In this document: piece after piece, positions 11,322 to 49,449 of the stretch
How positions within the stretch are numbered: the first letter of the stretch is position 1
How the letters are laid out: each line of letters opens with the position of its first letter
Source of the DNA: Mesodorylaimus sp. YZB2_4
Taxonomy: Eukaryota > Nematoda > Enoplea > Dorylaimida > Dorylaimidae
Direction: 5' to 3'
NCBI GenBank assembly: GCA_030248295.1
Contig: JASANH010000298.1
Location: 82,814-146,813 of the forward strand
Length of the DNA stretch: 64,000 nt
Made by a program: the position numbers and the translations under genes
The notes under the pieces: model-generated
Told to the model about the DNA's origin: nothing
What the model saw: the letters and a program-made list of their open reading frames with translations, nothing else
The model's database searches: none

Positions 11322-11534
11322 ATGACGGAGCAGCCTCGTGCTCGTACCAACCAGCCAGTTGATCGTTTGCAGTTGTTTTCCTTGTTTTGTAAAACCAATT
11401 CTTCCGAAATGGACAAAAAGAAAAAGATTCGTAAGCCTAAAATTCAAAGGTCCTCCAAGTCGGTGAATCGAAAGCGTTCATGTAATCGCAAACGAGTTAG
11501 CAAGAAGAGTAAGAAGGTCCAGAAGAAGAAATGA
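11322..11534 (+). CDS. Very basic core-like protein
   Basis: 70 residues. The last 40 are dominated by Lys and Arg with Ser (blocks MDKKKKIRKPK and KKSKKVQKKK). Such peptides condense DNA in virions or bind nucleic acid in the nucleus, and adenovirus-like viruses have comparable core peptides. The stop codon overlaps the start of the next ORF by ATGA, a compact arrangement uncommon for host animal genes and consistent with the viral-type relic. Low-complexity composition precludes a firm family call. Confidence 0.5.
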   Translation: MTEQPRARTNQPVDRLQLFSLFCKTNSSEMDKKKKIRKPKIQRSSKSVNRKRSCNRKRVSKKSKKVQKKK

Positions 11535-11854
11535 ATCGTCTAGATACTACTGTGGACTTAGACGTGTTCTCTGATCCGCCAGAAGAAAGAAGTGTAGCCG
11601 AGAGTCGTAAAGATATTATACCTGTCAATGTGTCTCCGCCTGATGATGATGTAAATTTTGCTGGGCCATTGGGATCTAGGTCATTGTTCGCCTACACTTG
11701 TTCGCGAGCAATTGTTCGCGGACAATTGTTCGCCCGCAATTATTCGCCTAAACAGTTGTTCGCCTATGCAGTTGTTCGCCAGCAGTTATTCGCCTATAAA
11801 TTCTTCGCCATAGCAAATGTTCGACATGCAATTATTCGCCATGTTGAATACTAA
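11531..11854 (+). CDS. Acidic ORF running into a minisatellite
   Basis: Residues 1-50 are acidic and Pro/Ser-containing (TTVDLDVFSDPPEERS, then SPPDDDV). From about codon 53 on, the frame runs into the GTTCGCC minisatellite, so the original C-terminus is lost. It starts in the ATGA overlap with the basic ORF. Role unknown; together they mark the right-hand end of the relic. Confidence 0.4.
   Translation: MNRLDTTVDLDVFSDPPEERSVAESRKDIIPVNVSPPDDDVNFAGPLGSRSLFAYTCSRAIVRGQLFARNYSPKQLFAYAVVRQQLFAYKFFAIANVRHAIIRHVEY
11690..11845 (+). repeat. Minisatellite of CAATTGTTCGCC-type units
   Basis: About nine degenerate units of 15-20 bp containing TTCGCC(T/A) and CAATTGTTCGC. The reverse-complement counterpart is at 12430-12570. 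Confidence 0.75.
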
Positions 11855-20057: not shown

Positions 20058-20551
20058 ATGGAGGTCGATGCGAACGAAAATTTCGGAAGGGATCAAGATA
20101 GCGAACGGCAATCATCTTTCGCTGAAGAAGCTTATCAGTTCGAGCCTTCAAATGAAAAGAAACGCTTACGGCAACTGTTGGATAAGAGGAAAAGACAGTT
20201 GGCTGCGAAGCACAGGTGAATGACTAAGTCTGCTTCTTTGTTTCCTTCGCCAGCTTCCTCGATTATACACAAAGTTAGTTTTCCTATCATACTGTAGGAC
20301 AAACAATGTACTCCGTGCAAGAATCGATGACGATCGTCTCGCAAATCTATCCTGGTGCTCATGCAAGCCCGACGAAACAGGCGATCATGGTTGCACAACA
20401 GAGCATAGATTTCCAAAATCTTGTTTTTGTTGCAAGGAGGCAGCCGCTTCTGGTACTAAGTACCTACGGAATGGCATACCATGCTCGAATGGGTCAAAGC
20501 AACTGCATCGTCAATGCGGATGGGTTTTACGAACGCGGCTAAGCACCGCTG
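20058..20551 (+). CDS. P2X7 C-terminal (ballast) domain gene, first two exons
   Basis: Exon 1 is 20058-20215 (ATG; acidic start, then a Lys/Arg-rich helix KKRLRQLLDKRKRQLAAKHR). The donor is CACAG|GTGAAT, the intron is 82 bp, and the acceptor is CTGTAG|G. Exon 2 is 20298-20551, with donor CTG|GTAAGA. Exon 2 carries a Trp-Cys-x-Cys motif (SWCSCKP) followed by CT, SCFCCKEA and later Cys (GIPCSN, HRQC). This matches the zinc-coordinating cysteine domain of the P2X7 cytosolic C-terminus and of many stand-alone metazoan relatives. Downstream exons with the family's AYRQF-W and IPSC blocks could not be found before 21.2 kb. The gene is therefore truncated or continues in a diverged form. No transposon ends were recognised around it. 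Confidence 0.6.
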
Positions 20552-21210
20552 GTAAGAGGCCTCGAAGCTTTTACTTATTTTTTTATCATCTGACCTTCTA
20601 CATTCCCACCTCGCTCATGTCTTGATAAAATGGCGAACTTCGTTATTTCAGAAAATTCAATGGTGGGCCGAAGCACTTGATATTGGTTTTTCTGAAAGCT
20701 TCAAATCTGAAATCTTCCTGAAATCTTCAGAATCTGCCTTTTGGCATTCGTTTTTTAAAAGCTTCAGTTTCTGAAAAGTTATTTCGGATCCATGATGCAG
20801 CTGGGCTGGTAGGTTACTGGACGAGTAAGAAAACTGCAATAGCACAAGACTAACAATCAGCAAGGGCCAGTTTCACAGTGCGATTCTAATTTTTCAAGTT
20901 ACGAATTGAGGGCACTATTATACAGCAACTTGGGCCAACGCTGAGACACCAATGCAGGACGTGTCACAATATCTGTTCCAGATGTGCCTCATCCGTAGAT
21001 TTAGGCACGTCCTATGACAGGTCTCATCTTGTTTCATAATTAAAAAAAGGATGACTTAAGACATTTTAGCAGAGCACGGAATTTTAAGTTAGAAATACAT
21101 ACAGTACTGTACGCGTAAGCTGAACACCCATTACTGGTCGGAGTTTTTTGTGTGATTGTATCTGAATAATTTTACTATATCACGATGACGTTTGGCTTAG
21201 ACGGGCTGGT
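20552..21210. other. No supported gene
   Basis: An acceptor-like TTATTTCAG at about 20650 is followed by a frame that stops after about 9 codons. A fold-back AGCTTCA..TGAAGCTT-like word pair lies near 20695-20770. Nothing else was seen. Confidence 0.35.
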
Positions 21211-31899: not shown

Positions 31900-34800
31900 G
31901 CGTGGGACTTTAAAGCAAAAGGTAAGAAATTTCATTATGCTAGAACGGCATCGAAGAAAACGGGGAGGCAAGAAAATTGCTTGCCAGAAATTGCGTATGA
32001 GGCATCCTGACGTGGCCACTGCTAGTCTGGAAAAATATAGGAGGCCGATGCTAGCAAGTTGCAACAGTCCCGTGAAAAGTATAAGGAGGCTGATGCGGCG
32101 AGCGTAAAGAACTCCATGAAAGCATGGGAACAAAAATATCCCAAGATGGCCAAATTAAGGAAAAAGCTATGGCAGCTAAGCAATGCCGACAAAAAAGCTT
32201 TGGCTCAAAGGCGATGAAAGTTGAAAAACGAAGTCAAAGTAGCTGCTGGGAAAAATGCTTTTCGCAAAAAGTGGACGTACGAAATCGACTTAAAATACCA
32301 CTTTTAGTACAAAGGATATTATTAAAAAGAGAGCTTATCGGCTACGTAGATACAAAGAAAACCTCGAAAGCGAACTCAGGCTACAACAGCAACGAGATCG
32401 TATCGATTTGCTTATCGTTAAAAGGTACCTACGAAATCCAAGTATTGCAATGGTCAGGGCTAGAGTCGGTTCTGTTGAGGGTATGTTTGCAAGAACGCTC
32501 GCAAAAAATCTACGCAAGAAAGACAGAAAAGCTGTGGCCCAGTGCCTTTATGATGCCAAATTGCTGGTTGCCTCAGGCGTTCATGCTCGAAATAAATGCG
32601 CCATGCGTTTTAAAAAAGGCACTCTAGCGTTGCAAAAAGTATCTGAAAAATATTTGAAAAAGGCCAAAACGGCAGGCAACGAGGCAACGCTTGAAGATGT
32701 GTGCGGAAATGCATCCCACTGCAAAGCTCGAGAGCCTTATTTTTACGATGCTGCATACAAAGTTTGTGATAATGTGACGACATATTGCAAGGGACTTAAT
32801 GAAAAATACGATAATGCATCATGGCCATGCAATCGTTTGGGTACTTGCATTCTGCCGAATAATGCATTGATTCGTTTGCTACAAATATGCAAACGCATTG
32901 TCGAAGAGGAAAATTTCAGGAGCTACTTGGCCACAGGAATTGATAAATGCAAACTTGTGGGGCATCCTAATATCGCGAATACGATCAGACCTGAAGATAT
33001 CATGACAGAGAGCACAGTGCCTAGCATGGGCAAACTTGGCCATTCGATAGCATGCTTGCCCGATAACTGCGATAGCGATGTGCTGTTCTTGCGTCAAATG
33101 TCAGTGCATTATGCGTTCATACGTGCGTTGCTGAACGCTGTTTATGAAGTCCAAAAACTGGACAGGGCATTGCACGAAATCGATACTGCACTGGCAAAAA
33201 GGGATGTTAAAAACTTGGAAAAAATTACGTTGCTCTGGTCTGGCTCAGGAGCCGACGTTTCACCCAAGGCAGTGACGGTAGATGAAACGGAGGAAAGCAC
33301 AGAAATAAAACTGAAGTCGCTTCGTTATGCTATCGAATTTTTAAAAGATATTCACCGAAAGCCAATCCGTGTTTGTGCCTCGTGTCGAATCATGCATTAT
33401 AAGACCCAAGTGCGGAATGTAAGCTTCGTTTCAGACGAGAAAACGGGTACTGTGAAAGTGTACACTGGCACTAGCCAAAAGAGGGAAGGTTCAGAAAAAC
33501 AGTGCAATGATCTGTGGCTGCAATTGTATGGAATTCTAAAAGCGGAGAACAAAGACACTGACAAGACCTGCGTGCCATCGTTGTTTCTCTGGCTTGACTG
33601 GAGGGAGGAAACATTCACCAGTGTCGGTATTTAACAAGCTTGAAGTAGCAGAGACGCCTGCCGAGCTTGCAGACCTGAACGATTTCGAAAAGCACTTCAT
33701 ACGAAAGGCAAAATGCGTTCAGGTCATTTATCGTCTAGGCACTGTTTAGTCCAAGTTACCAGCGTGGTGCGGAGTGAAAGGACGCAAAGGCCAGGTTGTG
33801 CACTATCCGCTTCCCATCGAAGAGACTCTCCGCACATTGCCTGATCCAAAAAGCATGCCTGATCCCAATTTATTAATCGTGGTCTATGGTGTGCCTACAA
33901 AAAATAAAATGGTGTGGAAAGCATTGGTTGATGTCGCGAAAATCAAAAAGGCCATCGAAAAGTTAAAGCAGATTAATCCAGAGTATACAAACCTGGATGG
34001 CGGATGGGAACCACTCAGTGGTCTGGAAATGACGGATGGCGAGCGCGACGAGGAGGTGATTCAAGAATGCGAGGGCTTTGCCAGGCAGCCCATGGTACGA
34101 AAGATTGAAAAGGAAGAGGAAACCAGAATCATGGAGTCGTATACTGTGCACCCACTGTACAAAAAGCGTCAAGACGGTACGAGTTTGGAGCTGTAACAGA
34201 TCAGGTGGAGTCCGAGCGAATTGACCCTAGGGGAGAAAAGCTTGACTTAATGTGCTTCCCTCACCTGTTCCCGAATGGCAGGAATGGCGAAGGGGAAAAG
34301 CGAGACTCAAAACTGTCGAATACAGACTTTGTTAAAAGTCTGAAGTACAACGAGAATCCAAAGTTTAGGCATGACCAACAGTACCTCTTCTACTCGTTGC
34401 ACAAGTACCAACTTCGTGCCATTGCAAACTCGATAAGCGAGACCCTCCGCAATACGTACGCATACACTGATGTTACCGTGGGCGAGTTTGTAAGGCGAGT
34501 GGCCGCTGGGGAGCAAGAGTTGGAAGCCAACTTGTCCTCCGCCTTTCGAAAAATCCGAGGCACCGCCGAATACTTGGAGCAGCAGCGCATGGATTTGAGG
34601 ACCATGGTTCGTGAACTGGGTCCCCCATGCTGGTTCCTCACTTTTAGTGCAGCGGAGTACTCGGATGATTGGCAAGATATGCGCGATGTACTGATCGAAG
34701 CAAACAAATGCGTGCAGGGCATAAACGAGATAACTAATGGCAAGCGATGCGCCATGGATTCGGTCTTCGCATCAAAGCACTTTCACCACAGATTTCTTCA

Positions 34801-35294
34801 CCACTTGGTGAAGTGACTGATTTCTTTTGGCGAGTGGAGTACCAGGCTAGGGGTGCGCCTCACTACTGTAACTAGCGCACCCAGGCGGCGGGAGATAGTC
34901 GAGAACTAAGTCTCTAAGCAAGAAACTCCGACTGGAGGTAGGCAAGTCTCGCGACTATACCTGCTCTGAAAACATCAACCGAAGAGGTTGACGTCCCAGC
35001 CAGGGGAGCGTATCGATTACTCCCGACCGCCAGGCGTGCTGGTCACACTACTACATGGTAGTCTGGGTCAAGGATGCCCCTAGGATTGGAATCGACCCAC
35101 CAGAAAAGGTGCTCGAGTTTATTCAAAAGTATGCCAAATGTCGCTTGCCTGACAAAGTCAAGGAACCTCTATTGCATAAGATGGTCACTACCTACCAGTT
35201 GCTACGAGGAAAGGACAAGTCTCGTTTGTACTATCTACCACACACTACCGCAGAGAGAACACCCACCCCCAGTACTCTTCTGGGGACACCTTGA
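31900..35294 (+). pseudogene. Helitron Rep gene (DUF6570 + Helitron-like N domain), broken
   Basis: Reading order: a Lys-rich helical N-terminus in changing frames (31900-32400); a 408-residue ORF (32408-33634) ending with a CASC..H Cys/His patch; a DUF6570-like part (33640-34190) with FEKHFIRKAKCVQVIYRLG and YPLPIEETLRTLP; then the Helitron replicator domain from 34205 with FPHLFPNG, FLTFSAAEYSDDW, FFWRVEYQARGAPHY and, beyond an inserted solo LTR, MVVWVKDAPRIG. The intact protein would nick and strand-transfer DNA by a HUH tyrosine mechanism. Defects are frame changes near 32400, 33630 and 34190, a TAG at 33750, the solo LTR at 34867-35047, and loss of everything after 35294 (including the helicase). 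At the HUH site the residues read H-Y-Y, so the second His is also lost. Confidence 0.8.
34867..35047 (-). mobile_element. Solo LTR of the TRIM family
   Basis: On the minus strand it starts TGTGACCAGCACGCC and ends GTTACA, matching the LTRs at 9590 and 10138 over its whole 181 bp. A 4-bp CTAC duplication flanks it (34863-34866 and 35048-35051). Removing it and one CTAC restores the Rep frame across RGAPHY and MVVWVKD. The shape is that of a solo LTR left by recombination between the two LTRs of a full TRIM. Confidence 0.85.
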
Positions 35295-35309
35295 ACACGG
35301 TACAAAAAA

Positions 35310-35748
35310 AAAAAAACACACAAACCTTCCCCCCCTCTCCCCCCCTCCCCCCCCCCCCTCGCTCCACTTTCCTCCTCTCCCCCCTACCACCCCCCCCCCC
35401 CCCCCCGCCCCTCCCCCCACCCACACCCCCTACCCCCCCCCCCTCCAAAAACACCCCCCCCTCCCTCTCCCTCCCCCCCCCCCCAAAAGAAAGACACTCC
35501 CCCCCCCCCCCCGCCCCCCCCCCCCCCAAAGACCCCCAACCCCCCCGCGGGGGGGGAGGGGGGGGGGGGAAGAGAACACAACACCGCGAAAAAAAAAAAA
35601 CGGGCGCGCAGGAGAGAGCACACCCCCCACCCGCCACCGACCACGAAGAAACGGGCGCGGGCGCCCGCCCCGCCCGCCACACCACCCAGGAGCCAACAGC
35701 CACACACCACCAAACCACACCCCACCCCCCCCCCCACCCCCCCCCCCA
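35310..35748. other. C-rich low-complexity tract
   Basis: A-run then about 430 bp of mostly C with short G-rich and A-rich interruptions, immediately before the left TIR. Long ORFs across it are Pro-rich or Gly-rich artefacts of composition on both strands. A milder C/A-rich tract is at 17690-17875. Confidence 0.7.
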
Positions 35749-35972
35749 TTTAAAGGGCCACTGAAGTCAAATTTTTTATGCTTCAAGGGCTAACCATACC
35801 CCCTGACAAATCATTTAGCCGCCCTAACTCTTGCACCCGGTCCCTCCCTCGCGCTCTGGAACATGAAAATGCTGTGAAATTCGAATTCGCGCCAAATGGC
35901 CTCTCCACCCTCAGGTTCGTGTTGGAATGGACATGTGTGCGCGTAAGTGCCACCATGGCTGCTCGGAAAACA
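35749..35972 (+). repeat. Left terminal inverted repeat
   Basis: Partner of 40345-40556. The matched region runs from TTTAAAGGGCC to GCTGCTCGGAAA, about 224 bp with few mismatches. Confidence 0.85.
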
Positions 35973-36054
35973 TGGAAGGAAATCCACGTTTTTGATGAAC
36001 GGAAAGCATTTATTTTGAGTCGCATGTAAGAAAAAGTGGCGAAGAAGAATAAAC

Positions 36055-36915
36055 ATGGAATCTGATGATGACCTGATTTCTGTGAGCTCAGAATATCCAA
36101 CTGACGAACCCTTGCAAGAAATGGTTCTCCGAGTTTTGAATAGCGTTGGAAGAATTTTACCAACTGGAGAAGATATCGGCGATAGCTGGTAGGTACAGTA
36201 CATAACGCAATGTGAAAATTAGTTGCAGTGCTTTCTTTTGACTTCAGTTTTAACAAGACTCTTGGTCTGAGGATGGACCCAATTCGCAACAAGGCCGAAA
36301 GTGTTGTCGATGGGGTTCCGTCCTGGTGCAAGTGCAGTGGTCGTTGTCAGCTTCAGAAAACCGTGGGGGAATGCTATTGCTGTCTCGAGTCTGCAGACTA
36401 CCAAACTGAAAACGCATGGAAGTTGCTTGAGCACGTCGAAAGCGGCTGCGTAACCGAGGCTAGAGCTTTCAAGCTGTTGTGCTTGGAGCACGAGGTAAGT
36501 AGGTGTCAATGTTACACGGCTGTCTCATTTTTCCTGAATTTATTTTGAATCCACCCACTCGTAGCATTTTTTACAGGTTGTCCGAGTGGAAGCACTACAA
36601 ATCGCCCTTTATCATGGACAAGAAATTGATCAACGCTCTAATCGCTTGCTGCGTCACGCTGCCTATCGCCAATTTATCTTTTGGTGTTTTGGTCGAATCG
36701 GATTTAAGAATCGACTGCAAATTCCATCGTGCGCAGTTTCAAAGATAAGGCAGGCGAGGAAGTTTGGTTGGAAAAGAAATATGTTGCTTCGGTGTCACAT
36801 ACCTACTATATAACGTAGCTTATCTAACTTTTAGGCGTTTCCCGATCCTGACGAAACTTACGTTGGATTCCACGACGCCACAGATACTGGAAATTGGTTT
36901 GAACTTCTTCCATAG
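36055..36915 (+). CDS. P2X7 ballast-domain protein carried by the transposon (4 exons, 212 aa)
   Basis: Exons 36055-36188, 36248-36494, 36577-36753 and 36835-36915 give one uninterrupted frame. The junctions are CTG|GTAGGT..CAG|T, GAG|GTAAGT..CAG|G and CAG|GCGAGG..TAG|G (a GC-AG intron). Residues 1-45 are acidic. A zinc-type cluster follows: WCKC (71-74), Cys78, Cys87, CC at 89-90, Cys112 and Cys123. The second half has the family's LLRHAAYRQFIFWCFGRIG (151-169), NRLQIPSCAV (172-181), an IRQAFPDPDETYVGF block (184-198), and a short tail. This is the complete arrangement of the cytosolic C-terminal domain of vertebrate P2X7, without any ion-channel part. In P2X7 the domain binds zinc and guanine nucleotide. 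What it does for a transposon is unknown; DNA or nucleotide binding is only a guess. It ends 250 bp before the end of the convergent transposase gene. Confidence 0.85.
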
Positions 36916-37162
36916 TTTTTCCGCTGTCAAATGCTGTTATTTGTGTCTTAGAGGATTTTAGGTAATGGACCTAATATGACGCAAGAACGATTGAATCCTC
37001 GCTAGTCCGTCTCTAAAGCATGTTTTCTCTTACAGCAAGCAAAAATAAACACTTTTTCACTTAGATGCGTATGCATGCAGATAAAGGGCATGAAAATTTC
37101 ACGTACTAATAACCACCTCTTCCTGGATCTATCCCCCGAAAATAAATGAAGTAAAGCAAATC

Positions 37163-39556
37163 CTAGTCAACAGGTTTAGGAGGCCTTTCTAAAGCTCTCG
37201 CCATCACACCTCTGATAACATCATCTGATTCGAACACAGCACGACCCTTTCCAGGCAAGTCCAACGCATAATCCACGCATGATGCAACGACGTCTTTTCG
37301 CCACGAATCGTACTTCTTCTCCCGGATAAACTTCTTTCGCCAGCCTTTCGACACTCGTGACCACTTCCAACGCCACATCGGCTGGTTATTCTTGTCCAGT
37401 ATTAGTGGCCGTCCGCAACTCGCATTGTGATCGATCACAGCCAAGGCAGAACGAGCATTGTAAGCTGGTCGCTTGTAAAAAAATCGTTTTGGCGCATATT
37501 TCAGTCTGACATTATGATAACTTTCTAGTTCACTGGTGAATAGTCCCATCGTGCACTGATCTAACAATGGTAACAGCTGATCGTGAACCAAAGCAGCCAA
37601 CTTCTGATGAGCCACAGACCTTTCTCGGATCCAGCCCGTCTGCGCCTCTTTTTCAGGCGTTATTTCGGCGTGGTGGCAGCTACGAACATACTGGAAAGAT
37701 TCGTCGGCCTCCCACTCGTGAATATTGATCATATGGTACAGGATAGATCGGACTAATTCTTGCAAAACCCGTTCATAATCTGCAGACCCCATCGAGCTGG
37801 CAATATTGCGGCAATTTTTGGTTGCCCAGATAAAATGATTTCGGATCTGCTTGGCCCACAGTCCGAGTTCTTTACATTCCCTTGATTCGCTGGCTTTGGA
37901 TATTTTGTTTCTAAAATTCTTGGAGAGGTGCCATACATCTAACTCATGGGCAATCGCTGAATAGCTTTTTCTCATCATCGAAATCACCTGAGAGTTCTGA
38001 TCAGTACAAAGAACTTCGACCCGAATTTCATCCTCATCCAAAAATTCGTTCAAAATCTGACTCAACCCGATTTTTTCCATAGCTGAGCTGCTACTGACCC
38101 CTGGATCAGTCACTTCGACAGGATTGAAGGACAGTATCTTTTTGTTGTCCAAGTTCATAGCTGAGACGGTACAGTAGTGGGCGGTGAAACCTGGCGAATC
38201 AAATTGGCCATCAGCACCAAGAATCAATGCTGCGGACTGGTCGTTGGCTTGTGTCTGTCTGATTTCTTGAATGAGCTGATCTCGCTGCATCGCATAGTGA
38301 TTCATTATAACTGGGCAAAGCACGTTTTCTTGATATGCAAAGTGTGAACGCTCGCTGTACAGTCCCAAATCGATGACATCGGCCACGGCACGGAAAGCAT
38401 TGAAATTTGATCCAGCACAAACGATAGCACCGGCCAGCTCGACGTTCAGGAGACCTGTTCGATTTTCGACCTGACAGGAGTCCCAAGTCTGCGAATGTCC
38501 ACCCGCGCAAGTCCATTGAACGTGCAATCGGCACCCATGTTTTGTTGATAGCACTTGGTCTCTATCAATAGGTTTTCCGCAACCATGCTGCTGGCAAATT
38601 TTGAATAATTCAGCCAGCTTTGCGCATTTGATGATGAAACAACCATTACGGTCTCCCAGCGGGCAAGTGCTTGAAACTTCGTCATCAACGACGATGGAGA
38701 CGCTATCTGAACTTGATTCATTTTTGGCACTACATGGAGGAGTATAGGTGGGTTCTCCAATCGGACTTCCGCCGTCGAAGGCAGCACCATACGAGTCGGT
38801 GGACATGTGGTCAGACAAAACTTCCTCAAGTTGCTTCGGTTCAAGAGTTCGATTTAGATCTTCCACCACTGACGATCTTTCTTGATCTATGACTATCGTT
38901 GAAGATTCGAGACATTCACTGACCGATAAGTCCAACTGACCATGTTCAGCTGATGACGAGCCAGGCGATGAGCACACATCGAAAGCAGAAGGGCCTGGCG
39001 TTCCAGGCGCCGCCAATGCCACTCCTTTTCCAGAATACTGATGCTCGTAATGTGGGGCTGGTATCGAAGTTTCTGGTTGACTCCTCCCTTGTTTCTCCTC
39101 AGATGTTTTTGGCTTCGACGCAATCTTTTCTTTCCAATCTGATGGATTCTCGAACTGAAAAACAAAATTTTAGAGCGCAGAGCCATATATGGTCTTGCAC
39201 ACTTTACGCATTATGCCCTCATGTATCAGCCCCACTAATACATCAGTTTTAGGCCTGGGTTGCCCACTTAAAATCGGATTGGCCCTGTGTCTATAAGTGC
39301 ATGCATTCACATCAGGTAATCAAAACGAGATTGTGCTATCAGACCTACAGTACTCGAAATAAAATTCAATTTTTTGCTCACCATAAAGTTCCAGTCACAT
39401 CGCTCGAATAGACAAGGACTAGCTTCTTCTTTCAACGTGAATAGTTTGACATCACCAAAAGATTCGATTCGATTAAACATCGACGGCAAAAAATGCCGGC
39501 CACAGACGAGAAATGATGGTGATAGCACCTCATTCACGGAAAGGTCTAAAGCTGTA
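37163..39556 (-). CDS. DDE transposase of the two-gene transposon
   Basis: The main exon 39154-37163 gives about 660 residues without a stop. An upstream exon of roughly 39556-39382 joins in phase (ATG|GTGAGC donor, TTTTTCAG acceptor) and contributes VCGRHFLPSMF, a THAP-like piece with Cys and His. The start codon was not fixed. The main exon has a Pro/Ser/acidic stretch, a Cys/His zinc patch (CQQHGCGKP.. CRLHVQWTCAGGH..WDSC), then the catalytic fold: LGADGQFDSPGF (first Asp), VLCTDQNSQV (second Asp), ELDVWHLSKNFR, and FTSELESYHN (Glu). This pattern is shared by a large group of invertebrate and fish proteins of MULE/KDZ-like DDE type; I do not know an agreed superfamily name. The acidic residues and the D-WH motif are intact, so it may be active. 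Confidence 0.8.
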
Positions 39557-39816
39557 AGCCAACAAGTGCGTTTGGACCAATCCGATCAAAAATGGGACAA
39601 AAAACGAAGACTAGAATGAATTGCCTTCTTGATATGCCGCAAATACTGCGAGAATTTTTGCTGAGAGCCAAGTTAAACATCCTAAAAATTCGCCAAGCTT
39701 TTTCAACAATATTTGAATAAAATTTCAATTAATTTTTCTTTTACATAACACATACAATCGTGAGAAGAAGCGCATCAGTTTTCACTCCATTTTTCTTTCC
39801 GAGCAGCCCTGTGGCA

Positions 39817-40350
39817 CTATAGCCATGGTGGCACTCATGGCTATACTATATGTGATAAATCACTGGCTCGCACCGAAGCGGGCGCCCCCTAACGGTATGA
39901 ATCAGTCAGCGTTGCCGGCATTCTCCATGAAAGCCCGGAAAGGAATGATATCAGATGAACAGTGCCAAGAGGCATGAAATCAGTCAGATGTGGACAATTT
40001 GAACTGTCATCACGTTTGGGCGAAAACATGGTTATTTTGAATTTGCCGCCAATCAGGCTCGAAGGCATACTGTGCACAGCTGCGCAACATAGTCAGCTTG
40101 CCGCATCCTAGCAGACGAGATCGATAAGAACCTGATTGGCGGCAAATTCAAAATAACGATGTTTTCGCTCAAACGTGATGACAGTTCAAATTGTCCACAT
40201 TTGACTGATTTCATGCCTCTTGGCACTGTTCATTTGATATCATTCCTTTCCGGGCTTTCACGGAGAATGCCGGCAACGGTGACTGATTCATACCGTTAGG
40301 GGGCGCCCGCTTCGGTGCGAGCCAGTGATTTATCACATATAGTATAGCCA
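39817..40350. repeat. Palindromic MITE nested in the right TIR
   Basis: Two arms of about 250 bp (39830-40065, 40125-40350) are near-perfect reverse complements: CTATACTATATGTGATAAATCACTGG, GCGCCCCCTAACGGTATGAATCAGTC, AATTTGCCGCCAATCAGG and others, around a spacer of about 60 bp. It separates the inner end of the right TIR (39803-39815) from the rest (40345-40556). A copy of the TIR word ATAGCCATGGTGGCACT lies on each side. Confidence 0.8.
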
Positions 40351-40556
40351 TGGTGGCACTTACGCGCACACATGTCCATTCCAACACGAACCTGAGGGTG
40401 GAGAGGCCATTTGGCGCGAATTCGAATTTCACAGCATTTTCATGTTCCAGAGCGCGAGGGAGGGACCGGGTGCAAGAGTTAGGGCGGCTAAATGATTTGT
40501 CAGGGGGTATGGTTAGCCCTTCAAGCATAAAAATTTGACTCCAGTGGCCCTTTAAA
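40345..40556 (-). repeat. Right terminal inverted repeat
   Basis: Reverse complement of 35749-35955 with a few differences; the outermost bases are TTTAAA. Confidence 0.85.
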
Positions 40557-40561
40557 GTACT

Positions 40562-41429
40562 CCTGGCCTGTGCAATCCTGGTGGCGTGGTTTGCTATTCC
40601 AATGTAGCTATGCACGCTCTCATGTCGTTGCATAGCTTTCCCAAAGTGTGCAATAACTTGCAAGCCATGCAAGGGAAACCGTTCCAAGAGGAGTTGGTTA
40701 TATTTTGGAGACAATACGATGCTCAGGAAATGCAAAAGCGGCCAGCTGTGATGTCGACCAAAAACATACGCACTTCGCTTTCTGCCAAGGGCAGGCTTGC
40801 ATTCAATGACGGAGATGGCCAGCAATGTGCCCGGGAATTTATGCAGGCAGTGATCCAAAAAGCGAAAGTGCTGGACTTGTTCAAAGTGCACTGGCTAGGA
40901 AAGTTTATGTGCCAGCATAACACGTGCGGTAAACAATAGACGAGCACAGACTTTAATATCACGCCATACTTGTCTGTGCTGCCATGGGGAGATCATAGTA
41001 TCGAGGAGATGATGGGATTCAGACCCGAAAAAGAGAAGGTATGCCCGAATTGCTCACGCAAAGGAATGGTGAAAGAGGCAATCGGAATAGTGTCGATTCC
41101 TGGCCAATTCTTACTGTGTATATTTCGATACGAAAGCGTGACAGCCAACTTGGCTCCAGTGAAGGAGTTCGATCCAGACCTGATAACGATATTTGGGAAA
41201 ACGTATCCAGTAGTTGCCGCAATTGAGCACATCGGCTTCGACCCGACGTCTGGTCACTATATTGTTTATGCAAGACGTGGAAACTTATGCTGGCTGTGCA
41301 ATGACAGCCGAGTCAGTGAAGACACAATACCAGAAGATCTAAAACGATAAGTTTTTTGATGTTGGAAAGGATAAAAACGCCACGCCCTGCTGTGTGTATC
41401 AGCATCTTGTAATGAAGGCCATGTCGTAG
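40562..41429 (+). pseudogene. Ubiquitin-specific protease (C19) domain, one nonsense codon and a late frameshift
   Basis: The frame from 40562 opens with GLCNPGGVVCYSNVAMHALM, the Cys box of USP peptidases (catalytic Cys at 40592). It continues through KVHWLGKFMCQHNTCGKQ, an in-frame TAG at 40937-40939, then FNITPYLSVLP..., a CPNC zinc pair, and the His box with IEHIGFDPTSGHYIVYARRG and LCWLCNDSRVSE (His and Asp of the triad). After 41350 a frame change adds FFDVGKDKNATPCCVYQHL, similar to USP ends. At about 280 residues it is a compact USP core. It would cleave ubiquitin isopeptide bonds. It begins right at the transposon edge. Whether it was part of the Helitron or a host-derived gene cannot be told, because the left side is the C-rich tract. 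Confidence 0.75.
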
Positions 41430-42555
41430 GGTACTGTATGTGCGAAAGTAAGAATTCACAAAGTGTGAAGGAGGCTCGAAATATGCCAGCTTAGTCTGCA
41501 AAAAACTGAAAAGCAAAAAAAGAGCTTGTGACACAGACTCGCTGTAAATATGTGACTGTTCTTGCTGTGCAAAAGTGCAAGTGCCAGTAACATACTGTAC
41601 ACATATGTTCTATGCTGTATGGAATACAAAAAAAGACTAAGAAATCTGCGTTCCGCACACTGCAAACAAATGCTAATCAGCAAACATCAAAACCTGTGGG
41701 GCCGGTTTTACAATCTCCTAGCATGCCCTGAATATTAGGACACACTAACTTCTACCCTACACTATTTTGATTTGATCCTCCTAACTGTAGGACATGTCCT
41801 TGGTGATCGTCAAACTGGTCAGCACAGTAAGATATCTTCTGTACCTCCCCGTCCTGTTTGCATTAATTTCCTTGAGTGGAAAGGCGGGTGCTCAGCCATG
41901 ACTACCACCTCCGCGTAGTGCTGAGCGGGCAACAGATGTCAATGACTCCTGGCTGAGAGTAGTCACTCTAGATCAAGGGATCGTCGTCCTTGCACACAAA
42001 GGTAAGTTCGATTTGAGTCTTTGGAGTCCCGTTTGTGCAAAGCCTCCATTTCAGCTCAAGGTGTTCGCTCGTGGTCAAGTCAAATCACTGGCCGAGATAC
42101 GAATGCAATGATGGCACAAAAAAAAATTTCTCATTAAATTTGCTGCTGGCGCGACGATCGCGAGACACAACACTGCTCACTATGATTCACATCGCCTTTC
42201 TCTGAACCCCCTTCCCTTTACTTCTCGCGTGTACTTGTAATACTCGTATCGTTAGTGCCAAGTAAAACTGTAAGATCGAGCGGTTGCGCCTAACATCCAC
42301 TGCGCTCCACACACATCGGAAATGGGCACTCTTTCCGACAGCTGCCAAATTTTTGAAGGACTTCAGCTTTGTGTTGCAAAAGCGAATAGCTTTTTCGGTT
42401 TAGAACTTCTGTTGGGAAAAAAACTGCTGCTGAAACAGTATTCTGTATGCTCATAATACTGTGAGTGAATAAGTGTGCCGCAACTGTAGACGTGCAAATA
42501 AACTTCTCTCCGTACAATAGATTTTAGCAAAGATGTAGTTGAAAAGGCGAAAAAC
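41430..42555. other. Intergenic; no supported gene
   Basis: Short ORFs only. No repeat beyond TACTGTA-type words was noticed. Confidence 0.35.
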
Positions 42556-47425: not shown

Positions 47426-49449
47426 AGCATGTAGGCGTGTTGTGTTGGCGCATTGGTCTTTTTAGACGTGTTTACCTGGTCACCAGTTATGAAGAAGCGT
47501 CGACGGCAACCAGGCGATATCGATGGGGTCGCATTCCATCAAACATTCTAAAAAAAGCATTGTCAGGAGAAGCGAAAAAACCAAAGACGACTGATGATAC
47601 TCGTATTTCTATGATGTAAATCCATCAAGATGGGGTGGTATGTACTGCACAATGTACGGTTGGTTGCGTGCAAAATACGCATGCACAAAGCTTATTATGA
47701 AATTAAATCGTGTAAGCCTTACCTAGTGTGCGTATATGCATAACGCATTACGCAAACTTGCAGCCTTTTCTCTGTCCGCGTCTCAACTTTTTCGTTCTTG
47801 CCACGGCTCGCACCAGGGTCGCACGGAAATTTTATGCAACGGGGAATATGCAGGCCTATTCACCAGTTGCTCATTGCAGGCTTTTCGAATCGTCTTACCT
47901 GTTGCCTTTCCGTCTAATCGTAAGCCGCCCGCAGTGACTTTCAAATCCTCTTTCTGGTATCGCAAACTGATCTTGGACGAGAGCATCGCTCACGATACCA
48001 GCGTTGCAACGACAATTCAAGTGCGACAATGATGGTCCAGCTAACATTGCTGTCTTAAGACAGCGCGCCAAAGACTATTCAACTTGATTGGCACTGACAT
48101 CTGCACGCGCAACCGCTTAATAAAGCGCCGAGAATGTTCTGAATTAGAGTATCTGGATCCACAGTTCCCGAAATTCTGGGAGGTGCATTGGATGGCGCCA
48201 CAGTTTCTGATGAGGCAAGGGATTTTTTTGGAACTTGCTTACTTTCGGGTCCCCTGCCGCTCGCACCCTACAGGATGCTTCCGGGTTGCCTTAAGAGAGA
48301 CTTCGTAAATTAGAGCCACTCGTACTTGGTGTGGGTGGCTTGTTCCTTAGAAGAGGGTCTGCATTGGGACAGGTTCGAATTCTTATGTTTGCGTTTCTTA
48401 ACTTTCCAGGGTCTAGAACGGCCAATGGCGATCCCCCGTCTGGTCAAGCAGAGTATTCGCCGCTTGGAGTTCGGATCTTTCGGGTTGGTATCCGTACTTA
48501 TCAACTCCTGGCGCCAAATGAAGTCCCTCTAAATGCTCCTTACCGTCTTCATCCACGTTGCTATCTGACCGTCATCTACCAGTTATCAGGGTCACAGGGA
48601 CCAGAATATGTAAGCCCAGGAACCGTCACCGTTCATACAGCAGTCGTCGTCGTCTCACTCAATAACCTTTTTGCCTGCTACGGTTTTTGGTTTTTTTTAT
48701 TTTTTCTGTGGGATGTTTTGGTGCTTGTTGGTGCGCAGCGGGGTGCGCGCATTCAGGAGGGGGCATCTTAGCGATAATAGGATTCATGACCCAATCGTTC
48801 GATCATTACTCACAGCCGGATCGGATTGGATCGGACCGGATCAGAAAATTTGGGAACGGATATGATTATGTGCAATAGGTACGTGGAATTTTTGCAACAA
48901 TGTATAACGCATCAACTTTTTTCGAAAGGTTGCCTCCCATTATAAATATAGAGTATTTCGTTATTTATTAGTATGAATTATACGTATCATGATGCCACGA
49001 CAGAAGCAGCGCACCTCTCAAGTCTTTTCCACACTGCTCATCATGTATACGCCAGGTGACTGCTAGGACATAGTTTCACAACTTTTCCATATTTGCTAAT
49101 TCATCAACTTTTTGTTTATTTTAGAATCATTCATTGATCATGGGCTGCCCGTTGGCCATAGTAATCAGAACACATCTGATGGTAATTTGGCAGGGTACTC
49201 GCATTATATCAACGTTGATCCGCAGTCTTGCATGCACTACTTGCATGCTTGACGCGTTGAAGAAACTGTGCCTCTCGTCGCCAAATACAACTCCAAATAA
49301 TGCGGTGTTTCACTGTCCAATTTGGGCGCATTCGATACGCTTATTTTTTCATAAGGTGCTGAAGAATCTAAACAGAAATGCAACTTTGGGGTAAAATAAA
49401 TAAGTATATCTCAATATTCCGAACGTATCACAATGTACAGTATACCCAC
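47426..49449. other. No supported gene
   Basis: ORFs of 98 to 146 codons at 47736-48032 and 48331-48771 show no motifs, and adjacent frames overlap. 48820-48865 has GGATCGGATT-type words. Confidence 0.35.

What the first reader, a model, noticed from the sequence alone, without database searches (positions are those of the whole stretch)
35749..40556. Transposon that carries an intact P2X7-ballast-domain gene beside its transposase
Seen directly: long TIRs enclose a spliced 212-residue P2X7 C-terminal-type gene with all Cys blocks and the AYRQF-W, IPSC and YVGF blocks, and a convergent spliced DDE transposase with DSPG, TDxN, DVWH and SE motifs. Known: in vertebrates this domain is the cytosolic tail of the P2X7 receptor, and stand-alone relatives exist in invertebrates. 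Inference: the domain may be a working accessory gene of a DNA transposon superfamily, which would suggest that the P2X7 tail itself derives from mobile DNA.
Basis: partly seen in the sequence, partly recalled or inferred. Interest (0 to 1): 0.9.

Follow-up and report, generated by a model that had tools for sequence, protein, structure and literature searches.

The report
Kolobok transposon carrying a P2X7-tail gene
A jumping gene of the known Kolobok group carries, beside its transposase, a small gene related to the tail of the vertebrate P2X7 receptor; that pairing is already published, but distant cousins in the same genome seem to carry a virus-like cell-fusion gene as well, which looks new.

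Summary
A 4.8-kb TIR element (35754-40551, TTAA both sides) carries an open four-exon, 212-aa ballast (KolX) gene convergent with a DDE transposase whose 668-aa catalytic frame is open. Four of six copies that keep a TIR arm have all four ballast exons; 15 of 20 ballast loci scanned have a related transposase in the same stretch of at most 10 kb. The window element is a new member of a known kind.

New lead: seven ballast loci of a second lineage also hold a gene like class III viral fusion glycoproteins; the five with all three genes share the order transposase-ballast-glycoprotein. On C392 all three lie in one 12.1-kb insertion with 21-bp TIRs, absent from eight sibling repeats. Against it: such genes are common here (at least 68 matches), TTAA was not confirmed there, and no tree was possible.

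The parts
35750..35753 (.). left TTAA target-site copy
   Evidence: TTAA also at both ends of copies C322 and C209
35754..35960 (+). left terminal inverted repeat, 5'-AGGGCCACTGAAGTC
   Evidence: I2, I3
36055..36188 (+). KolX/ballast exon 1
36248..36494 (+). KolX/ballast exon 2, first Cys clusters (WCKC..C, CYCC)
   Evidence: no Pfam match by itself
36577..36753 (+). KolX/ballast exon 3 (RHAAYRQF, IPSC)
   Evidence: PF20478, 38.8 bits; intron-3 donor is GC here, GT in six other copies
36835..36915 (+). KolX/ballast exon 4 to stop (FPDPDETYVGF)
37163..39154 (-). transposase catalytic exon, open, DDE with DSPG/TDQN/DVWH/SELES; 5' splice border inferred
39382..39680 (-). transposase N-terminal THAP exon, disrupted in this copy; borders inferred
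39836..40352 (.). nested palindromic non-autonomous insertion with 8-bp GTGGCACT repeats; not part of the Kolobok element
   Evidence: absent from copy C271
40346..40551 (-). right terminal inverted repeat
40552..40555 (.). right TTAA target-site copy

Best explanation
A Kolobok DNA transposon of the Kol0 type. The THAP/DDE transposase (motifs shown, activity inferred) binds the ~200-bp TIRs and cuts and pastes the element into TTAA. The second gene, KolX, makes a 212-aa zinc-type ballast protein that has been kept together with the transposase. Most likely (inferred, about 60%) it works in trans in the transposition complex or its control, as a Cys/Zn-stabilised, possibly guanine-nucleotide-binding module. 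This copy has an open KolX gene and an open catalytic exon but a broken THAP exon, so it probably makes no fully working transposase by itself.
For: TIRs and 668-aa frame. TTAA at both ends with 5'-AG and CT-3' termini; TTAA with 16-of-16 matching ends also in C322, C209, C595 and C222 elements. PF20700 and PF20478; P2X7 chains by sequence, E 5e-8. Same-family copies C271, C322 and C384 with all four exons, C243 with a decayed part. Transposase in the same stretch of at most 10 kb in 15 of 20 ballast loci scanned. Between-family protein identity: KolX pieces 36-68%, transposase 32-49%; NG86 dS was 3.1 and 26 in two comparisons and not computable in the other seven. Published definition.
Against: THAP exon broken here, and none of the six copies seen has both genes fully open. 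Between recent copies KolX differences look near neutral (window vs C271: 3 synonymous, 8 non-synonymous). Seven of 11 PF20700 places lie on contigs without a ballast match, so the gene is not universal among related transposases. The left flank is low-complexity sequence that does not match the right flank's repeat, so no empty site was shown for this copy. No Kol0 reference transposase could be compared. One search scored only 40 of 201 candidates, so copies may be missed.
Confidence: 0.93

Rival explanations
1. The ballast gene is a host gene captured once by this transposon family as passenger cargo.
For: Stand-alone ballast genes are reported across animals (PMC7016195); fragments without transposase or TIR exist at C1042 and C877.
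Against: It accompanies transposases in several families whose DNA no longer aligns except in short stretches; C1042/C877 are 97-98% copies of the window's own exons 3-4; host P2X matches lie on C4, C6, C14 and C90, none of them a contig with a PF20478 match.
Confidence: 0.04
2. KolX has no role in transposition and persists as a selfish or host-modulating cargo gene.
For: No function has been tested; the solved ballast fold is known as a receptor tail (PMC7016195 abstract and sections 9, 11).
Against: Long co-conservation with the transposase fits either reading but favours a role in the element's life cycle.
Confidence: 0.3
3. The glycoprotein-like genes beside the second-lineage ballast loci come from unrelated LTR-retroelement envelope genes that happen to lie nearby or were nested in.
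For: At least 68 PF24664 matches in this genome (68 of 145 candidates scored), eight of them in frames of about 1,700-2,500 aa that suggest retroelement polyproteins; ballast contigs C322 and C567 also have such matches more than 10 kb from the ballast gene. Chuvirus-type glycoproteins in BEL-Pao elements are known in mosquitoes (PMC7642597, passages).
Against: About 0.1 such neighbours expected in 20 loci of 10 kb from 68 matches (my arithmetic), 3 seen in that list (C392, C450, C768) and 7 by profile; same order in the 5 loci that show all three genes; all inside one bounded insertion on C392; transposase fragments beside glycoprotein-region fragments at C274, C354, C683 and C320.
Confidence: 0.25

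Closest known systems
Kolobok, Kol0 lineage with KolX (Kolobok-1_XT type; Kojima & Bao 2022, PMC9587614)
   Same: DDE transposase with DxxH signature, TTAA target, 5'-RR..YY-3' ends, second gene with P2X7 ballast similarity
   Different: Long ~200-bp TIRs and a THAP exon (the word THAP does not occur in that paper's text); unplaced on the published tree; host not identified
P2X7 C-terminal ballast / Zn-coordinating cysteine domain and Nanor-like proteins (Rump 2020, PMC7016195)
   Same: PxWCxC, CC..C and (I/L)PSCxxxxIRxxFPx5YxG blocks; the RH pair and the Arg equivalent to R578; the paper reports H547 as not found in invertebrates, here the H is present
   Different: Stand-alone, spliced, transposon-borne; C-x3-C spacing in the first block; positions of R574 and K583 not conserved
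Other Kolobok lineages with accessory nucleases or helicase (KolobokP, D, E, H; PMC9587614)
   Same: Same superfamily, each with its own accessory protein
   Different: Accessory here is the ballast protein; no nuclease match in the frames scanned
Teratorn (piggyBac-herpesvirus fusion; PMC10175614, passages) and Anakin (BEL-Pao with chuvirus glycoprotein; PMC7642597, passages)
   Same: Mobile elements that gained a viral glycoprotein gene, as the second-lineage elements seem to have
   Different: Teratorn is a 180-kb whole herpesvirus, Anakin a retroelement; the loci here pair a glycoprotein with a Kolobok-like transposase and KolX

Membership tests
Kolobok superfamily | TTAA target-site duplication | tested here: met
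   window 35750-35753/40552-40555; C322, C209, C595, C222 elements both sides
Kolobok superfamily | termini 5'-RR and YY-3' | tested here: met
   5'-AGGGCC...GGCCCT-3'
Kolobok superfamily | DDD/E transposase with C/DxxH between second D and E | tested here: met
   ADGQFDSPG, CTDQN, DVWH, SELES in the 668-aa frame; PF20700 63 bits
Kol0 lineage | second gene KolX with ballast similarity | tested here: met
Kol0 lineage | transposase groups with Kol0 on a tree | not testable with these tools
   no reference transposases held; protein database switched off
KolobokP/D/E | CCHC zinc finger after the first D; nuclease gene | tested here: not met
   only two Cys between the first and second D in the frame; no nuclease match in the four frames scanned
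P2X7 ballast domain (PF20478) | profile match over cut-off and conserved Cys blocks | tested here: met
   38.8 bits over 23.5; blocks against the consensus
P2X7 ballast domain (PF20478) | solved-type fold with two zinc ions | not tested
   spliced and the fetch from genomes proteins are outside what structure prediction accepts by its stated rule; not tried
three-gene second lineage as Kolobok | TTAA target-site duplication | tested here: inconclusive
   C392: TTAA on the left, on the right only an A before the host sequence; a partial copy on C222 has no TTAA at its left end
three-gene second lineage as Kolobok | DDE transposase with DSPG and DxWH motifs | tested here: met
   by a simple motif scan both seen in C392, C768, C420 (with glycoprotein) and C337, C803 (without; C337 reads DSPV); only the first seen in C450 and C854:13416
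class III viral fusion glycoprotein (PF24664) | profile match over cut-off | tested here: met
   C450 52.0, C392 45.6, C768 40.5 bits over 27; C567 24.3 bits, below it; frames tested from C443, C420 and C854 gave no PF24664 match

The most novel reading that the evidence does not exclude
In this genome a second lineage of Kolobok-type DNA transposons carries three linked genes, transposase, KolX ballast and a class III viral-type fusion glycoprotein (in two loci also a Pro-Thr-rich mucin-like frame), i.e. a cut-and-paste transposon with its own potential envelope fusogen, which would give it a route between cells or species. On C392 the three genes lie in one 12.1-kb insertion with 21-bp TIRs; on C768 they lie between inverted repeats of at least 518 bp.
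Probability: 0.65. Interest if true: 0.8.

Novelty: new member of a known kind. Interest (0 to 1): 0.5.

Why it matters
The window element adds independent whole-genome support that the P2X7 tail belongs to a family of transposon proteins, kept in several transposon families of one host. If the second-lineage reading holds, a DNA transposon superfamily has acquired a fusion glycoprotein, as retroelements and herpesvirus-piggyBac fusions have done; that would offer a mechanism for patchy spread of Kolobok and a new example of the transposon-to-virus step.

Tried and rejected
A search for short TTAA-flanked TIRs at C392, C450, C768, C437, C337, C420, C854 and C803 gave no convincing pair; a random control was obtained only for the first four, because the script stopped, and one search had none. 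The apparent right end of the C392 element at L037:6226 (10 of 16 matches) was rejected once the flanking repeat placed the right junction at C392:47934/47935. The empty-site test for the window copy failed: the right flank is a multicopy UCH-like repeat, the left flank is low-complexity sequence that does not match it. The viral-contig scans found no relative of KolX or of the C450 glycoprotein by the patterns used. The host was not identified: rRNA and COI searches did not complete. dN/dS between young copies was uninformative (wrongly included 58 nt of 3'UTR, corrected). Structure prediction was not tried.
Full report
WHAT IS THERE. The element is real. Inverted repeats of 28 nt (96%) and 191 nt (99%) bound 35749-40556. 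The outer bases read TTTAAAGGGCC...GGCCCTTTAAA, so TTAA lies at 35750-35753 and 40552-40555 and the element proper is 35754-40551 with 5'-AG and CT-3' ends. On the plus strand four exons (36055-36188, 36248-36494, 36577-36753, 36835-36915) give a 212-aa protein. It matches P2X7 receptor chains in the PDB by sequence alone over residues 67-199, E 5e-8; the exon-3 frame scores 38.8 bits against PF20478, cut-off 23.5, while the exon-2 frame alone matches no Pfam family. The blocks PSWCKC..C, CYCC and IPSCxxxxIRxxFPx5YVG follow the published consensus of the Zn-coordinating domain, with one residue more between the Cys of the first block. On the minus strand a 668-aa open frame matches PF20700 at 63 bits and carries ADGQFDSPG, CTDQN, DVWH and SELES.

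The transposase has an upstream THAP exon (about 39680-39382; PF05485 20.3 bits, below cut-off 23.9). In copies C271 and C322 its start reads through CNIC..VPSDW (VCGRHF follows in C271; C322 is deleted there); in the window the first Cys is replaced, one base is missing and a stop falls in the frame. So this copy is not intact as a whole. 39836-40352 is a 517-bp near-palindrome with GTGGCACT on both sides; many of the 95 matches are separate copies of it elsewhere, mostly 90-98% identical, and copy C271 lacks it. The 8-bp repeats and CATG ends recall hAT/P-type elements (recalled, not tested). KolX intron 3 begins GC here and GT in the six other aligned copies; GC-AG introns are usable in animals (recalled).

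OTHER COPIES OF THE FAMILY. One search (40 of 201 candidates scored) found C271, C322, C243, C384 and C209 besides the window, and two fragments (C1042, C877: 469 bp of exons 3-4, 97-98%). All six copies keep at least one TIR arm; both arms were seen in the window, C322, C384 and C209, one in C271 and C243. Four have all four ballast exons (window, C271, C322, C384), C243 has a decayed part and C209, a 1.07-kb derivative with TTAA at both ends, keeps exon 1 and the start of exon 2. Open state: KolX is open in the window and C384, has a 1-nt gap in C271 and a stop in C322; the C271 catalytic frame has three gaps; C384 has no transposase and C322 an internal deletion. No copy seen has both genes fully open.

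GENOME-WIDE TEST. PF20478 has 21 matches in the 145-Mb genome. The window and 19 of the other 20 places were scanned for transposase frames with a profile iterated on this same set (the 2.3-kb contig C1057 was not): 15 of 20 have one within the stretch fetched (up to 10 kb; in C437 a single 75-aa frame). The five without are C384 (deleted, but between the family's TIRs), C1042 and C877 (fragments), C443 and C567. Families with both TTAA ends and convergent genes are the window's, C595's (with a 99% copy at C854) and C222's; C437 is convergent too, without ends. By the same profile the 64-kb window holds no second transposase match. In the other direction, PF20700 has 12 matches at 11 places, 4 of them ballast elements and 7 on contigs without a ballast match, so related transposases without ballast exist. 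Between families KolX pieces are 36-68% and the transposase 32-49% identical in protein, with synonymous changes saturated or not computable, which fits long-kept genes. Host P2X matches lie on C4, C6, C14 and C90 (31 exon matches), none of which bears a PF20478 match.

WHAT IS KNOWN. PMC9587614 (abstract, sections 3, 10 and 12 read; passages of 9, 15, 16 and 17) says that Kol0 Kolobok elements encode a transposase and KolX, that KolX is similar to human P2X7 476-595, that its presence in transposons had not been pointed out before, and that P2X7 arose by fusion of a P2X4-like gene with KolX; Nanor is named as a likely domesticated KolX. PMC7016195 (abstract, sections 9 and 11 read) describes the domain across animals. 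Searches for 'KolX' and for 'Kolobok' with 'ballast' in the held library each returned only PMC9587614. The host could not be named; P2X and GPCR-type genes suggest an animal.

HOW IT LIKELY WORKS. Shown: gene content, TIRs, TTAA, conservation. Inferred: THAP binding to the long TIRs, cut-and-paste at TTAA by the DDE core, KolX acting in trans in that complex or its control. The RH pair and the Arg matching R578 of the GDP site are present, the positions of R574 and K583 are not conserved (alignment, residues), so nucleotide binding is possible but open.

A SECOND LINEAGE WITH A FUSION GLYCOPROTEIN. Ballast loci C392, C450 and C768 (L037-L039) have frames of 662, 558 and 542 aa that match PF24664 (Monjiviricetes fusion glycoprotein) at 45.6, 52.0 and 40.5 bits, cut-off 27; the C450 frame also finds herpesvirus gB chains in the PDB weakly (best E 0.0023). 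They are 43-47% identical to each other over 400-505 aligned residues, and third codon positions differ most. C567, C443, C420 and C854 hold frames related to one another and only distantly to these; of them C567 reaches 24.3 bits, below cut-off, and the frames tested from the other three match no PF24664. Thus 7 of 20 scanned loci have it, none of them of the window's type. In the five loci that have all three genes (C392, C450, C768, C420, C854) the order is transposase, ballast, glycoprotein; strands vary. On C392 the left junction is at TTAA 35787-35790 and AGGCAC, the flanking repeat resumes at 47935, and both ends carry the 21-nt AGGCACACCCTCTCAATCGAA: an insertion of about 12.1 kb holding all three genes, with eight sibling copies of the repeat running through the site uninterrupted. 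On C768, L039:1-448 recurs inverted at 11388-11835 (100%) and the repeat runs at least to 430/11905 (80 of 81), enclosing all three genes; similarity to C247 starts at L039:13, so the true end is uncertain. C320 repeats the C450 unit at 95-99% with internal deletions. Transposase fragments lie beside glycoprotein fragments at C354 and C683, and at C274 beside a stretch that covers only the end of the glycoprotein frame and what follows. Glycoprotein-like DNA without a transposase fragment was seen at C525, C163 and C416, so 4 of 7 such places in these capped lists are linked. Pro-Thr repeat frames follow the glycoprotein on C768 (with a signal-peptide-like start) and C392.

AGAINST THAT READING. 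PF24664 matches at least 68 places in this genome (68 of 145 candidates scored), eight of them in frames of about 1,700-2,500 aa that look like retroelement polyproteins, and two ballast contigs (C322, C567) have such matches far from the ballast gene. So such genes are common; by that density about 0.1 neighbours were expected in 20 loci of 10 kb (my arithmetic) against 3 in the same list and 7 by profile. The C392 right junction keeps only an A of TTAA, and a partial copy on C222 has no TTAA at its left end. About 2 kb of the insertion were not read. No glycoprotein tree could be made. Paper searches for Kolobok with fusogen (one paper, PMC9004415, not opened), for transposon/fusogen terms, for chuvirus glycoproteins with DNA transposons and for class III fusion glycoprotein terms listed nothing that by title or abstract start describes this, in that library only; of those I opened passages of two.

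VERDICT. Observation confirmed; interpretation right and already published; the bolder lead is the fusogen-bearing relatives.

Noticed in passing
L037, L038, L039, L042, L045, L046, L047 (C392, C450, C768, C420, C443, C854, C567): Class III viral-type fusion glycoprotein frames beside ballast genes; in the five loci with all three genes the order is transposase-ballast-glycoprotein.
   Followed up: partly
window 20058-20555: Likely remnant of a second KolX-like gene (first exon MEVDANENF..., then WCSC..CFCCKE), weak profile match E 3e-4, no Pfam match, no transposase match near it.
   Followed up: partly
window 39836-40352: 517-bp near-palindrome (225-nt arms, 97%) with 8-bp direct repeats, many copies in the genome.
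   Followed up: partly
window 40556-42146 and 34109-35294: Right flank is a multicopy repeat with UCH/USP-like frames (below cut-off); left side has a Helitron-like N domain (PF14214). Whether they belong together is open.
   Followed up: no
window 35300-35748: About 450 bp of C-rich low-complexity sequence directly left of the element; may be an assembly or read-quality artefact.
   Followed up: no
L039:9022-9645 (-) and L063 (C392:44880-45780): Frames with long Pro-Thr repeats (mucin-like), on C768 behind a signal-peptide-like start, next to the glycoprotein genes.
   Followed up: no
L037:4660-5046, L039:5063-5752: Cys-rich CXC-like stretch upstream of the ballast part in the second lineage (weak CXC/TCR matches below cut-off).
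   Followed up: no
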